DNA of 49,615 bases from the NCBI GenBank assembly GCA_029775875.1, contig JARVKD010000005.1, forward strand, positions 1 through 49,615, in the 5' to 3' direction. The notes beneath the pieces are model-generated. The model made no database searches. It saw only the letters and a program-made list of their open reading frames with translations, and was not told the DNA's origin. Shown piece after piece: positions 44,293-49,615 of the stretch. Position numbers and translations under genes: made by a program. Numbering within the stretch: position 1 is the stretch's first letter; each line of letters begins with the position of its first letter. Source of the stretch: Nitrososphaeria archaeon. GTDB taxonomy: Archaea; Thermoproteota; Nitrososphaeria; Nitrososphaerales; JACAEJ01.

Positions 44293-44529
44293 ATCTAACT
44301 ATACAAATACTAAGTATATTAAATTTAATAGTCAAGAAAAAATATTTTCATATTGGAAATTGCTCATGAAGCAAGGGTCAAAATTTTGATGATTCTTATA
44401 GGAAAAAGTATCGTGATGGTATTAAATGGCTTATTAATAAACCAGTTTTGCCATTTGTCCCATTAGTATTTAGAACTTCTCATTATCTGACATAAAATCT
44501 TAAGACCAAGGGGAAGTAATACACTGCTA

Positions 44530-44736
44530 ATGAGTCAGAAGCTGGTGTATCAGTTAATTAAGGAATTAGGCGGTACAGCTTTTCCAAAACAAATAATCGA
44601 ATTGGCTAAAAAAAGATATCCCGACAGTAAGCTATACGCCTACATCTATACTCGACTACAAAGTCTAGCAAAGTGGGGATATATTAGGAAGAACCCTGAT
44701 GGTAGTTGGTCAATAATGGCTGAATTACCATGCTGA
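44530..44736 (+). CDS. small winged-helix-like protein
   Basis: GTAFPKQIIELAKKRYPDSKLYAYIYTRLQSLAKWGYIRKNPDGSW. Confidence 0.55.
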   Translation: MSQKLVYQLIKELGGTAFPKQIIELAKKRYPDSKLYAYIYTRLQSLAKWGYIRKNPDGSWSIMAELPC

Positions 44737-44747
44737 AAAATTAATTG

Positions 44748-46595
44748 TCACTCATTAAAGTATTTCATCAAGCTAGTATTTTCAGTGGTAATATTACTGA
44801 CAACCTCATAAACTTGAGGAAGTCTCACGTCACCTTCCATATATTTGAAAGCGCATCTTAATTTATTTCCGAAGTAGGCTACGTCCCACTTATCTCTTTT
44901 TGTAATCCTCACTAGAAAGTCAGCTTTAGCAGGTTGCCAAGAGGTTGTTAACGATGTATCGATACCAAATGCAACACCAATAACGATACGCCTTAATTCT
45001 CTATTTTCTCCCATTCTTTGAAGGGTCTCAATTAGTGCCTCAGTTATGATGCGTTCTCTTCTAATCTTATCTAATTTAGCTATAGTTTCTTCGATTTCCT
45101 TCTTATTGAAAGAGCATTTACTTTCCTCTAAAGCAAGCTCATTTGATTGCTTTGAATTGTCTGGTGGAAGCCATGCCATGACGTCAACATACATCCTTTT
45201 CTGCTCTCTTCCTTTGTGCTTTTCAGGTAGTATGGCAGCGTCTCCCTGTGCCCCTTGATACCTTACTGACATTATGTCGAAGTTATTAGGTTTAAGAATT
45301 TGGTGAATTACGACGTAGGTTACTTCATCTTCGGCAAGTTCTCTTTCTATTTTCTTAACAGAAGAAGGCCTTACGTATCTTCTTGAGTCGAACAATCTAA
45401 TTAGAGATTCCTTGAACTTGTTTTTGTCTATCTTAAAAATAGATTTACGGTCCCATTTAAGCCGAAAGGTAGCTCTTTGGTCCCTATCATGGATGATCAT
45501 TCCATCAGAGAATAAGAAAATCGAGAACAGTACTTTATTATTATACCATTTGTCCGTTATCCTCTGGAGTAACTCTGTTAAGTCGAGAGTGTTGTCAGTT
45601 AGGTTGTTCTTTATGAAACGTTCAACATTTGTAATAAAATCAAAAGGTAACCCTTCAGAGAGAGACTGTTTGATGAACCTGTCAATTAACGTCTTTCTAG
45701 TTTTAACACTATCATCCTTTACAACATATCTTACAAAGACCGTACTAACAGGGATTACAAATGATGAGAATATTAGCATGCCTCTGTCTGGGTCAGCAGC
45801 ATGCGAAAATCTGTTAATCTTAACGACTAATGAGTCTTGATCTAGCCGAATCCTTGACTCCCCTTTTTGATATTTCCTTTGCCTCCAATCTTGAATCCAA
45901 TCTGCAAGGCTCATAGCAGATCGTATATCTTTTTGATAATTTTGAAATTCATTCGCGTTAAGTAACCCACGGACTACAGTCTCTTCCACAGTCTTATTAC
46001 TGCTTATAATGTCAGCATAATTATCTACCGTTTCTTTTACAGCCAAAGTTATTGTTTTCTCTGCAAGAGGGACTAGGCCTTTAGCCGGACAGGATAAGTA
46101 ATTAGGGTCCCTTTTCAGAATGTAAGGGTTTTTATCCATAGTGGGCCACGTTCCTACAATAAAACCTTTAAAACCGAACACTTCATCAAGAATTCGCCCA
46201 ACAGTCAAAGGATTGAACTCTTTCTTACCTCCATGCTCTTTTAAAGACAGCTTTTGGCCAGATATCTTTAGATATAAGCATCCTGATAGAACGGACGCTA
46301 CTCCGCCTATTGCTCTTTGAAGTTCATGATCTTCTGTAAGGACAGATTCAGAAAATTCGCCCAAAATTATTGGAACCTCTACCGAACCTTCACAAATTGT
46401 GATAAGAAAATCTGGAGTTGTTAGAGAATAGATGCTATGGATAGCACACTTTTCTGAATTTTTGAAACTTTTAGGACTCCTAACCAACTTGATGGGGATC
46501 TCTTTAATCTTAGATTGGTTGATTCCTTCCTTAACAAACGGTAGAATATAGTGGTACGCCTGTTCTAAGCATTCAAAATAAACTCTTATTTCCAT
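44748..46595 (-). CDS. putative restriction endonuclease (two nuclease-like motif regions)
   Basis: TPDFLITICEGSVEVPIILGEFS near N-terminus; YVDVMAWLPPDNSKQSNELALEESK near C-terminus; same operon as two methyltransferases; ATG 46595 follows GGTGTGG (track start 46616). Confidence 0.6.
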   Translation of the reverse strand: MEIRVYFECLEQAYHYILPFVKEGINQSKIKEIPIKLVRSPKSFKNSEKCAIHSIYSLTTPDFLITICEGSVEVPIILGEFSESVLTEDHELQRAIGGVASVLSGCLYLKISGQKLSLKEHGGKKEFNPLTVGRILDEVFGFKGFIVGTWPTMDKNPYILKRDPNYLSCPAKGLVPLAEKTITLAVKETVDNYADIISSNKTVEETVVRGLLNANEFQNYQKDIRSAMSLADWIQDWRQRKYQKGESRIRLDQDSLVVKINRFSHAADPDRGMLIFSSFVIPVSTVFVRYVVKDDSVKTRKTLIDRFIKQSLSEGLPFDFITNVERFIKNNLTDNTLDLTELLQRITDKWYNNKVLFSIFLFSDGMIIHDRDQRATFRLKWDRKSIFKIDKNKFKESLIRLFDSRRYVRPSSVKKIERELAEDEVTYVVIHQILKPNNFDIMSVRYQGAQGDAAILPEKHKGREQKRMYVDVMAWLPPDNSKQSNELALEESKCSFNKKEIEETIAKLDKIRRERIITEALIETLQRMGENRELRRIVIGVAFGIDTSLTTSWQPAKADFLVRITKRDKWDVAYFGNKLRCAFKYMEGDVRLPQVYEVVSNITTENTSLMKYFNE

Positions 46596-46605
46596 GCCCA
46601 CACCT

Positions 46606-47802
46606 TTATTTTTCACATGTTAATAAGATCACGTGCTCCTGTTTTGTTTTATTCCTAAATGCTGGGTTAAAGGTTTTGCTTGCATAGCCCAAATTATACT
46701 CAACCTCATTCACAAGTTTAAATCCTGTCTTATCAGCAAGCTCACGAATTATTGCGTCTCCCTTCAGAAGTTCCTTTCGTATGATCGAATCTCCAACAAC
46801 TATTATGAATGGTTTTCCAGGTTTGAGAATACGGTTAAAATGTTTAAAACACTTCATCATATCATTCATGTAGGTATCAATATTCTCCTTCTGGCTTGAA
46901 TGCCTAAGTCTTGAACCCATCTCGTTAAATTTCGCATTTTCCCAATCTAATCCTAGCCAGAGCATCCGTAATTTGTGATACAAGTAATAATCATAAGTAT
47001 TTGGATAAGGTGGTGAGGTAACTATAAGATCAGCAATGTTGTCATCAAGGAAATCTAAGTATCTGCTGTCAGCATGATATATGTCTACTCTACAATCACT
47101 AGCCATTTGATTAAACTGTTTAACCCTACTAACCATGTCTAGTGCCTTTTCTCTAAAGAGGAGGAAAGGTTGTTTGGGAGGGATTTCTTTTTTTATAGCC
47201 GCATACCTTGTTTCGCTATCTTGATTAGAAACAGGAACTATGACGCAAGAAAACGCTAATAGAAGAAGGTCTTTGAGTTCAGGGGTAACGTCTGCTTCCA
47301 TTATAAGTGCCTTAATTATTGAAAGTTCGTGTAAAACATGTTCTTGAAACCAATGATCTCTATTTGGGAAGTCAGGTAAAACATATGAAAAAGCTCCATT
47401 CTTTATATGCTCTCCCATAAAAGCTAGAAGTGTTTTATGTCCATGGAGTTTTAAAACAAAAGAGTCTATTCTTCTCTCTATAATTCTAATCAAATCAGGT
47501 ACTTTGCGTAACTCATCCTCTGGGATTTTTGTTATTTTTACCTTTGACATGAAGACTCCAAGTGGATGTATATCAACACCTATGCTGTTTCTCCCTAATA
47601 ATTTTCCCTCAACTAAAGTCGTCCCACTACCACAAAAAGGATCAAAAACAGTGTCATATTTCAGACTAAACTGTCTTATCATAAAGTTTGGTATTTGCGG
47701 TATGAATTTTGCAGGAAAAGGATGGAAGTTATGGGTAAGATATGTAGTATCTTTAGCATTTAATACTATGTTAAGTATTTGTTCTTTAGCTAGGAATGTC
47801 AT
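46606..47802 (-). CDS. amino-DNA methyltransferase (N4-C/N6-A type)
   Basis: THNFHPFPAKFIPQIP, DPFCGSGTTLVEG (motif I), DLIVTSPPYPNTYDYY (motif IV). Confidence 0.88.
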   Translation of the reverse strand: MTFLAKEQILNIVLNAKDTTYLTHNFHPFPAKFIPQIPNFMIRQFSLKYDTVFDPFCGSGTTLVEGKLLGRNSIGVDIHPLGVFMSKVKITKIPEDELRKVPDLIRIIERRIDSFVLKLHGHKTLLAFMGEHIKNGAFSYVLPDFPNRDHWFQEHVLHELSIIKALIMEADVTPELKDLLLLAFSCVIVPVSNQDSETRYAAIKKEIPPKQPFLLFREKALDMVSRVKQFNQMASDCRVDIYHADSRYLDFLDDNIADLIVTSPPYPNTYDYYLYHKLRMLWLGLDWENAKFNEMGSRLRHSSQKENIDTYMNDMMKCFKHFNRILKPGKPFIIVVGDSIIRKELLKGDAIIRELADKTGFKLVNEVEYNLGYASKTFNPAFRNKTKQEHVILLTCEK

Positions 47803-48971
47803 ATGCTCGCCTTAGTATTTGCTTCTTGAGGTTTTCTTAATACTACCAAGAATGTGTGATTAATATTTACGTAGAATACTGTGGGATAACCTAATAATAC
47901 TAAACTTCTTTGCTCGTTTTGATCCCAGACTATAAGATCATGATACAGGAAACCTACTTTTTTACCTATATGGGCGATATCGGAATGGAAATCTATGAAC
48001 GGCCTTCCATTTTGAGGATCTCTGCAATCTTTAACTACCCACACATTATATCCGCCTGGCTTAGTTACTAAGATTAATTTCCTCATTAAAGCTTTGATTT
48101 CTTTTAAGAAAGCATCGTAAGGAAGATTACCAAAATCCCTAGGATCTTCCCCATATTGTTTAACTACAGATTTGTTGTCAAATACTAGTCTCGAAGTTTT
48201 GTGAGTTTTTTTCCTATCTTCAATAGAGCGAATGATAAAGTTTGCATATGGTGGTGAAGTAAACATTAATTGTACACTATTTGGTTCCACCCATTTTAGC
48301 AGTTCTCTACAGTCGCCACAAATTACTTTTTGATCTGGCTTCTCAATAAGCGTCTGTTGACCAAGAACCTCTTTTGCAAGGTCAACAAATTTATCATATA
48401 ATTCTATGCCTATTCCTCTTCGTTCGAGATTCCTTGCAGCGACTAAAGTCGTCCCAACTCCTACAAACGGGTCTAAGACTAGATCGCCTTCTTTTGTGTA
48501 CATTTTAATTACTCTCTCAGCTAAAGCTACAGAAAAAGTGGCTCCATGCTTAAGATGGTACCACTCCCGTGCAGAACTTACCTCCCTTGCGCTCCAGACA
48601 CTCTTACTTAATTGTGTCCACTCTTTAGGTGTTAGACCGTTAAAACCAACTCGCTCACTTTCATTTGTTCGGTTTTCACTCTTGGCTGGAGTTTTCACTA
48701 CACTCTTGCCTTCATCTGTGACTAGCTCTACTTGGTAACCATCTTGGGTACGGTTAATCTGTACACGGCTTCCTGCAGAAAACTTACCTTTCAGAAAAGG
48801 CGACCAGATTCTTGCATATTTATCAAGTCTTCCAGGCATTCCATTTACCAGGACATTGGAGGGCATAAGCATGTCCCCGATAAGTTCACTTCGGCTGTTG
48901 GTAGGTATTTGGATGAAACCTTTAAGAACTTCCATGCTTCTAAGAGTTTTCTTAATTACTTTCTCGCTCAT
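47799..48971 (-). CDS. second amino-DNA methyltransferase with ~140-aa N-terminal extension
   Basis: LVLDPFVGVGTTLVAARNLERRGIGIEL (motif I), VQLMFTSPPYANF (motif IV). Confidence 0.88.
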   Translation of the reverse strand: MSEKVIKKTLRSMEVLKGFIQIPTNSRSELIGDMLMPSNVLVNGMPGRLDKYARIWSPFLKGKFSAGSRVQINRTQDGYQVELVTDEGKSVVKTPAKSENRTNESERVGFNGLTPKEWTQLSKSVWSAREVSSAREWYHLKHGATFSVALAERVIKMYTKEGDLVLDPFVGVGTTLVAARNLERRGIGIELYDKFVDLAKEVLGQQTLIEKPDQKVICGDCRELLKWVEPNSVQLMFTSPPYANFIIRSIEDRKKTHKTSRLVFDNKSVVKQYGEDPRDFGNLPYDAFLKEIKALMRKLILVTKPGGYNVWVVKDCRDPQNGRPFIDFHSDIAHIGKKVGFLYHDLIVWDQNEQRSLVLLGYPTVFYVNINHTFLVVLRKPQEANTKASI

Positions 48972-49198
48972 TCAACTTTCACCTTATTATTAAAGTAAAT
49001 TCTCGCTGGACCGACTTTTCTTGAATAAACATCCCCTTTCTCTTCCATTGCTGAAAGGAAACCTGCCATAAATTGTCGGTTTACATGGGAGGCTTTTGCT
49101 AGTTCCTTCACACTAAGCCCCGGAGTCTTTGAGAGAAGTCTCCTGACTCTCATAGTTAAATCTTTATTCTTATGAGACTGCGTATTCATTTCTGTCAT
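48968..49198 (-). CDS. winged-helix regulator, possible controller of the R-M operon
   Basis: LLSKTPGLSVKELAKASHVNRQFMAGFLSAMEEKGDVYSRKVGPARIYF; 4-nt overlap with downstream methyltransferase. Confidence 0.65.
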   Translation of the reverse strand: MTEMNTQSHKNKDLTMRVRRLLSKTPGLSVKELAKASHVNRQFMAGFLSAMEEKGDVYSRKVGPARIYFNNKVKVE

Positions 49199-49336
49199 CC
49201 TTTTGGTTTTCCTTTATGATAATACATGTTTTCCTTAATAAATTTAACGAACTATTTAACGCTTTGAGAGACTTAGTAAGAAGCCGTTTCAATTATAGCC
49301 TTTGCTACAAGTGAAAGAATTATATTATTTTTGACT

Positions 49337-49615
49337 TTACTTCTTCATGTATTCTCTTATGCCTTTTACCTTATCTTCCATAGTTCTAGGCTTATCTCTT
49401 CTATCGTCTATTCTAAGGTTAGATTCAACTCTTTTAATTCCAGCTTTGAATAAAGCCTCATGGGCAACTTTTTCTACTGAATAAACCATATCATCAACAT
49501 CATTGGTTAGTTTTAGGTTTCCAAGGTCTAACAAACTCAAACTTTCCAGATCAACGTCTAAAAAAAGGGAGTAAACTTCAATGTTCATGTAGGCTTGTCT
49601 GATAGCATTAGGACC
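49337..49615 (-). pseudogene. partial chimeric ORF: agmatinase segment fused to MTH1187/DUF77-like C-terminus, open at right edge
   Basis: 49465-49615 aligns to 6464-6614 with 6 mismatches; frame stays open upstream of the track's Met (GPNAIRQAY); tail HEALFKAGIKRVESNLRIDDRRDKPRTMEDKVKGI. Confidence 0.7.

What the first reader, a model, noticed from the sequence alone, without database searches (positions are those of the whole stretch)
44748..49198. Four-gene overlapping operon wHTH - MTase - MTase - putative endonuclease: candidate new restriction-modification system
Seen: the minus-strand genes are coupled by overlap (48968-48971, 4 nt; 47799-47802, 4 nt; MTase1 and the 622-aa ORF nearly abut). 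The regulator is transcribed first, then both methyltransferases, then the putative nuclease. Knowledge: both MTases carry TSPPY and FxGxG-type motifs of amino-methyltransferases; paired, non-identical MTases typically occur where the recognition site is asymmetric and each strand needs its own enzyme. Inference: an archaeal R-M system, perhaps type IIS-like, with delayed endonuclease expression.
Basis: partly seen in the sequence, partly recalled or inferred. Interest (0 to 1): 0.72.

Follow-up and report, generated by a model that had tools for sequence, protein, structure and literature searches.

The report
Archaeal BsmI-like restriction-modification island
A 5-kb gene island in an archaeon carries a DNA-cutting enzyme distantly related to the laboratory enzyme BsmI, two methylating enzymes that would protect the host's own DNA, and a small regulator; the same gene set recurs in bacteria, so it is a real but rare member of a known kind of anti-virus system rather than something new in principle.

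Summary
In detail: four minus-strand genes (wHTH, M1, M2, 622-aa ORF) are tightly coupled. The core interpretation also holds. The M1-M2-622-aa set is conserved in a Helicobacter plasmid, an actinobacterium, a WWE3 bacterium and Brachyspira; all four genes, wHTH included, recur on viral-collection contig L013. The 622-aa protein (R) has no Pfam family but matches a PADLOC Type II REase model. Foldseek of two predicted models hits only the four BsmI structures significantly (best E 2.8e-11, full length). Both glutamates mutated in BsmI nicking variants (E109, E546) correspond to invariant residues (E87 by profile alignment, E498 by motif and order). R is most likely a single-chain, two-active-site Type IIS/IIT endonuclease, with one methyltransferase per strand of an asymmetric site (both TSPPY, predicted m4C). 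The island (about 44328-49312) is absent from a congener, so probably acquired horizontally. Unusual: M1 carries an N-terminal module found on other archaeal DNA methyltransferases and not in Pfam; R is only 34% identical to that of L013 although M1 and M2 are 83% and 68%; a BsmI-type locus uses other methyltransferases. Recognition site, activity and delayed nuclease expression are untested. New member of a known kind.

The parts
44328..49312 (.). R-M island: segment absent from congener G002, where the two flanks lie 8 bp apart; about 44443-49293 relative to G001, which holds an unrelated 0.87-kb segment there
   Evidence: blastn of window against L108 and L109; junction sequences
48968..49198 (-). 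wHTH (MarR-like) putative regulator, first gene; overlaps M1 by 4 nt
   Evidence: PF01047 E 2e-5; 73% identical over 62 aa in L013 at the same place
47799..48971 (-). M1, amino-methyltransferase (TSPPY at about 48246-48260)
   Evidence: PF01555 E 7e-30; 48-83% identical core in seven homologous loci
48687..48959 (-). N-terminal module of M1 (residues 5-95), absent from all seven M1 homologues, present on other DNA MTases of the same archaeal phylum
   Evidence: no Pfam match, no PDB match
46606..47802 (-). M2, amino-methyltransferase (TSPPYPNTYDYYLYHK; TSPPY at about 47005-47019)
   Evidence: PF01555 E 2e-22; 32-68% identical homologues next to M1 in all loci
44748..46616 (-). R, BsmI-like restriction endonuclease, 622 aa from GTG or 615 aa from ATG 46595
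   Evidence: PDLC03439 REase_II E 4e-22; Foldseek BsmI; profile top hit BsmI E 0.004
46257..46592 (-). N-terminal nuclease domain of R (residues 9-120); D69 at 46410-46412, E87 at 46356-46358
   Evidence: hhalign to BsmI 85-142, E 5.6e-8, D69=D91 and E87=E109; invariant in six homologues
45117..45185 (-). C-terminal catalytic motif of R: D478 (45183-45185) ... E498-S-K500 (45117-45125)
   Evidence: D478 and E498 invariant in six homologues; same order as BsmI D528...E546-S-K548
44530..44736 (+). 68-aa convergent ORF inside the island, immediately 3' of R; role unknown, may not belong to the system
   Evidence: inside the insertion

Best explanation
This is a horizontally acquired Type II restriction-modification system. 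R is a single-chain endonuclease with two different active sites (N-terminal D69/E87 and C-terminal D478/E498/K500), each cutting one strand in or close to an asymmetric recognition sequence, as in BsmI. M1 and M2 each methylate one strand of that sequence (probably N4-methylcytosine, from TSPPY) and so protect the host; foreign DNA lacking the marks is cut. The wHTH protein, encoded first and coupled to M1, probably controls the operon. Shown: gene order, homology, conserved linkage, catalytic residues, BsmI fold match, empty site in a congener. Inferred: activity, asymmetric site, m4C, regulation.
For: Conserved M1-M2-R order in a Helicobacter plasmid, IMCC26256, WWE3 and Brachyspira, and wHTH-M1-M2-R in L013. 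All R members tested match PDLC03439, a Type II restriction enzyme model. Two AF2 models, window R (pLDDT 43) and WWE3 R (pLDDT 66, pTM 0.74), give BsmI as the only significant PDB matches, E 3.6e-6 and 2.8e-11 over about 570 columns, next hit E 0.01-0.03. A sequence profile independently ranks BsmI first (E 0.004). BsmI chains deposited as nicking and inactive mutants carry Glu-to-Val changes at E109 and/or E546; E109 aligns with invariant E87 and E546 corresponds by order and motif to invariant E498. Empty site in G002.
Against: No activity, methylation or expression data. The window R model has low confidence (pLDDT 43), and the C-terminal part of the better model is also poor (residues 443-524 below 50). 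The C-terminal site is matched to BsmI by motif and order, not by a significant alignment. One relative (L013) has Ile in place of the C-terminal Lys. The BsmI-type locus in G684 uses other kinds of MTases, so the recognition site cannot be carried over.
Confidence: 0.86

Rival explanations
1. R has one working nuclease site and acts as a strand-specific nickase, or needs two copies to make a double-strand break; the C-terminal domain is structural.
For: The L013 relative has E-N-I instead of E-S-K at the C-terminal site, and the C-terminal domain aligns least well with BsmI.
Against: In the window and four other members D, E and K of the C-terminal motif are kept; D478 and E498 are invariant in all six.
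Confidence: 0.08
2. The system no longer restricts: M1 and M2 survive as an epigenetic or anti-restriction pair and R is decaying.
For: Two Asgard genomes hold M1 and M2 without a detectable R; a spirochaete relative of R is broken by several stops; window R is the more divergent of the window/L013 pair.
Against: Window R is open over its full length with all putative catalytic residues intact.
Confidence: 0.06
3. The locus is an assembly or binning artefact and does not belong to this archaeon.
For: The window is a whole contig of a fragmented assembly; its last 144 bases (beyond 49471) do not match congeners and fuse an arginase-like piece to a thiamine-binding gene.
Against: Both island borders run into DNA 90-94% identical to congener G001, and the M1 N-terminal module belongs to the same archaeal phylum.
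Confidence: 0.03

Closest known systems
R.BsmI (Type IIS, GAATGC by memory; PDB 9f38, 9ezd, 9ez5, 9ez7)
   Same: Full-length fold match; N-terminal PD...E and C-terminal D...ESK catalytic motifs in the same order; two MTases also stand beside the BsmI-type gene found here (L116).
   Different: About 10% identity in the structural alignment; a close BsmI relative belongs to another PADLOC model (PDLC03434), and its locus has a DPPY-type and a D12-like MTase (by reading), not the TSPPY pair.
PADLOC REase_II family PDLC03439 (602 positions; prototype not named in the library)
   Same: All six R proteins match it, E 4e-22 to 5e-67.
   Different: The window member is a weak match, archaeal, preceded by a wHTH gene and partnered with an M1 carrying an extra domain.
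Helicobacter sp. NHP19-003 plasmid pNHP190003_3 locus (K6J72_RS08100-08110)
   Same: M1 48%, M2 32%, R 25-27% identical, same order.
   Different: No M1 N-terminal module, no wHTH homologue found; R annotated as hypothetical protein.
Type IIT single-chain enzymes (Mva1269I, BtsCI, AciI, BsrI, BssSI, BsrBI; PMC4081073)
   Same: One chain with two different catalytic sites, generally accompanied by two MTases.
   Different: No sequence comparison with these enzymes (other than BsmI) was possible here.

Membership tests
Type II restriction-modification system | Endonuclease gene linked to cognate DNA methyltransferase(s) | tested here: met
   R beside two PF01555 MTases, order conserved in five further sources
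Type II restriction-modification system | Sequence-specific cleavage blocked by methylation | not testable with these tools
   needs biochemistry or methylation calling
Type IIT / BsmI-like two-active-site endonuclease | Single chain with two distinct catalytic sites | tested here: met
   D69/E87 and D478/E498 invariant in six homologues; they correspond to the glutamates changed in the deposited BsmI nicking mutants; the C-terminal correspondence rests on motif and order only, and catalysis itself was not tested
Type IIT / BsmI-like two-active-site endonuclease | BsmI fold | tested here: met
   Foldseek E 2.8e-11 (WWE3 member) and 3.6e-6 (window), only BsmI significant; models are of low to middling confidence
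Type IIT / BsmI-like two-active-site endonuclease | Asymmetric recognition site cut close by | not testable with these tools
   two non-identical MTases are consistent with it
BsmI subfamily proper (PDLC03434) | Match to the BsmI-type sequence model | tested here: not met
   window R and its relatives match PDLC03439 only; a close BsmI relative matches PDLC03434 at 2.6e-177
C-protein-regulated R-M system | Small HTH regulator encoded upstream that delays R expression | tested here: inconclusive
   wHTH present and conserved in L013, but it is MarR-like rather than the HTH_3 type known for C proteins (own knowledge), and expression was not tested
m4C amino-methyltransferase | Motif IV S-P-P-Y type (TSPPY) | tested here: met
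   TSPPY in M1 and M2, invariant in the 7-member alignments; base specificity predicted from the motif only

The most novel reading that the evidence does not exclude
The system is a mosaic in which the endonuclease has been exchanged while the methyltransferase pair stayed, and M1 has gained an archaeal DNA-binding module that, with the wHTH, gives an archaeal way of regulating a bacterial-type R-M system.
Probability: 0.18. Interest if true: 0.5.

Novelty: new member of a known kind. Interest (0 to 1): 0.36.

Why it matters
It links an endonuclease family annotated as hypothetical, without a Pfam model, to a solved structure and a two-site cutting mechanism, so recognition site, cut positions and nicking variants become directly testable. 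It adds an archaeal member to a BsmI-like group. It also exposes an N-terminal module, not in Pfam, shared by several archaeal DNA methyltransferases.

Tried and rejected
Single-sequence searches with R in the genome contigs and viral collections found nothing, as did alignment searches of the viral set with R; searching with M1 alignments solved this. AarI/BspMI/PaqCI was considered from memory as a relative and dropped because no sequence or fold match to PaqCI appeared. The weak L096 hit looks like a Lon-type protease and was discarded (by reading). R-gene exchange was tested with trees: M1 and M2 group window with L013 at full support, R does not, but the AU test does not reject that grouping for R (p 0.33), so exchange is not proven. 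The 8-bp repeat TGAGCGAG near the M1 module is out of frame with the protein junction and was not taken as a target duplication. No paper on the BsmI structure was found in the library.

Full report
Observation. The wHTH and M1 genes, and the M1 and M2 genes, overlap by 4 nt. The last ORF overlaps M2 by 11 nt from its GTG, or lies 10 nt after M2 if it starts at ATG 46595, which fits the start of its homologues. M1 and M2 match PF01555, the small ORF matches MarR, and the 622-aa ORF has no Pfam family but matches PADLOC's Type II restriction enzyme model PDLC03439 at E 4e-22, over most of the model length. The neighbourhood is archaeal: archaeal GltX, S11, RNA polymerase subunit D and a family B DNA polymerase lie in the window.

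Conserved gene set. A plasmid search with R found Helicobacter sp. NHP19-003, where MTase, MTase and the R homologue stand in the same order (pairwise comparisons). Searching with the M1 alignment found loci in actinobacterium IMCC26256, a WWE3 bacterium and Brachyspira catarrhinii with the same three genes, and two Asgard genomes with M1 and M2 divergent and no R detected. In the viral collection, contig L013 holds all four genes including the wHTH; nothing in the 10 kb read proves it to be viral. The family is rare: no other genome among 398 sampled from the host's phylum, and in samples of 247, 333 and 247 genomes from three bacterial phyla almost only the seeds, one broken copy and a BsmI-type relative.

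What R is. Two AlphaFold2 models were made, window R (pLDDT 43) and the WWE3 member (pLDDT 66, pTM 0.74). In both cases the only significant PDB matches were the four BsmI structures, E 3.6e-6 and 2.8e-11 at best, over about 570 columns. A sequence profile of six R proteins independently puts BsmI first, E 0.004. A protein from a spirochaete-phylum genome (L095) is a close BsmI relative (E 6e-175) and had been picked up by the R profile at E 1e-6. Comparing the deposited BsmI chains shows Val in place of E109 in the top-nicking chain, Val in place of E546 in the bottom-nicking chain, and both in the inactive one. Profile-profile alignment places D69 on BsmI D91 and E87 on E109 (E 5.6e-8). The C-terminal D478...E498-S-K500 has the same order and type as BsmI D528...E546-S-K548, but this half did not align significantly by itself. 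D69, E87, D478 and E498 are invariant in six homologues; K500 is Ile in L013. The review PMC4081073 describes Type IIT enzymes as having two different catalytic sites, recognising asymmetric sequences and generally having two separate MTases, which is the anatomy seen here.

Mechanism. Shown: gene order, conservation, candidate catalytic residues, fold relation. Inferred: each R site cuts one strand of an asymmetric sequence; M1 and M2 (both TSPPY, the motif typical of N4-cytosine methylation by established knowledge of the families) protect one strand each; the wHTH regulates. The recognition sequence is unknown and should not be assumed to be that of BsmI, because the BsmI-type locus found here (L116) has a DPPY-type and a D12-like MTase instead (types by reading).

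Origin. In congener G002 the flanking genes are adjacent: matching blocks end at window 44327 and resume at 49313, with 8 bp between them in G002. In G001 the same site holds a different 0.87-kb segment. The cassette is therefore most simply an insertion at a variable site.

Oddities. First, window M1 has about 100 extra N-terminal residues; L013 M1 reads MSEKVGFNG where the window reads MSEKV-(module)-SERVGFNG. The module is present on four other DNA methyltransferases in the same phylum, on cores of different motif order, and has no Pfam or PDB match. Second, on shared columns window and L013 are 83% (M1) and 68% (M2) identical but only 34% (R), and L013 R is nearer to the WWE3 R (41%; difference 2.5 to 11.7 points by bootstrap). 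In the Helicobacter-Brachyspira pair the values are 68, 64 and 54%. Exchange or rapid change of R is suggested, but the tree test does not settle it.

Verdict. A real, probably functional Type II (IIS/IIT) R-M system with a BsmI-like endonuclease: a new member of a known kind with some unusual archaeal features.

Noticed in passing
48687-48959 and L112-L115: N-terminal module of about 90 aa (G-F-x-x-I-P...R-x-E-L-x-G...D-K-x-x-R-x-W...L-K) shared by DNA methyltransferases of different motif order in the host's phylum; not in Pfam.
   Followed up: partly
49337-49615: Contig-end ORF joins an arginase-like N-terminal piece to the C-terminal part of a thiamine-binding protein; congeners have a normal thiamine-binding gene. 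Possible chimeric contig end.
   Followed up: partly
44530-44736: 68-aa ORF convergent with R inside the island, without a significant family match.
   Followed up: partly
L013 7059-8861: R relative with Ile replacing the C-terminal Lys of the D...ExK motif (ENI instead of ESK).
   Followed up: partly
L116 287-2374: Close BsmI relative in a spirochaete-phylum genome with two MTases of other types next to it.
   Followed up: partly
L094, L097, L098: Broken R relative with several in-frame stops in another genome of the Brachyspira phylum.
   Followed up: no
L005 946-3224, L006 1884-4156: Asgard genomes with divergently arranged M1 and M2 and no R detected in the assembly.
   Followed up: partly
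L109 9351-10216: Congener G001 carries an unrelated 0.87-kb segment with a 125-aa ORF at the same integration site.
   Followed up: partly
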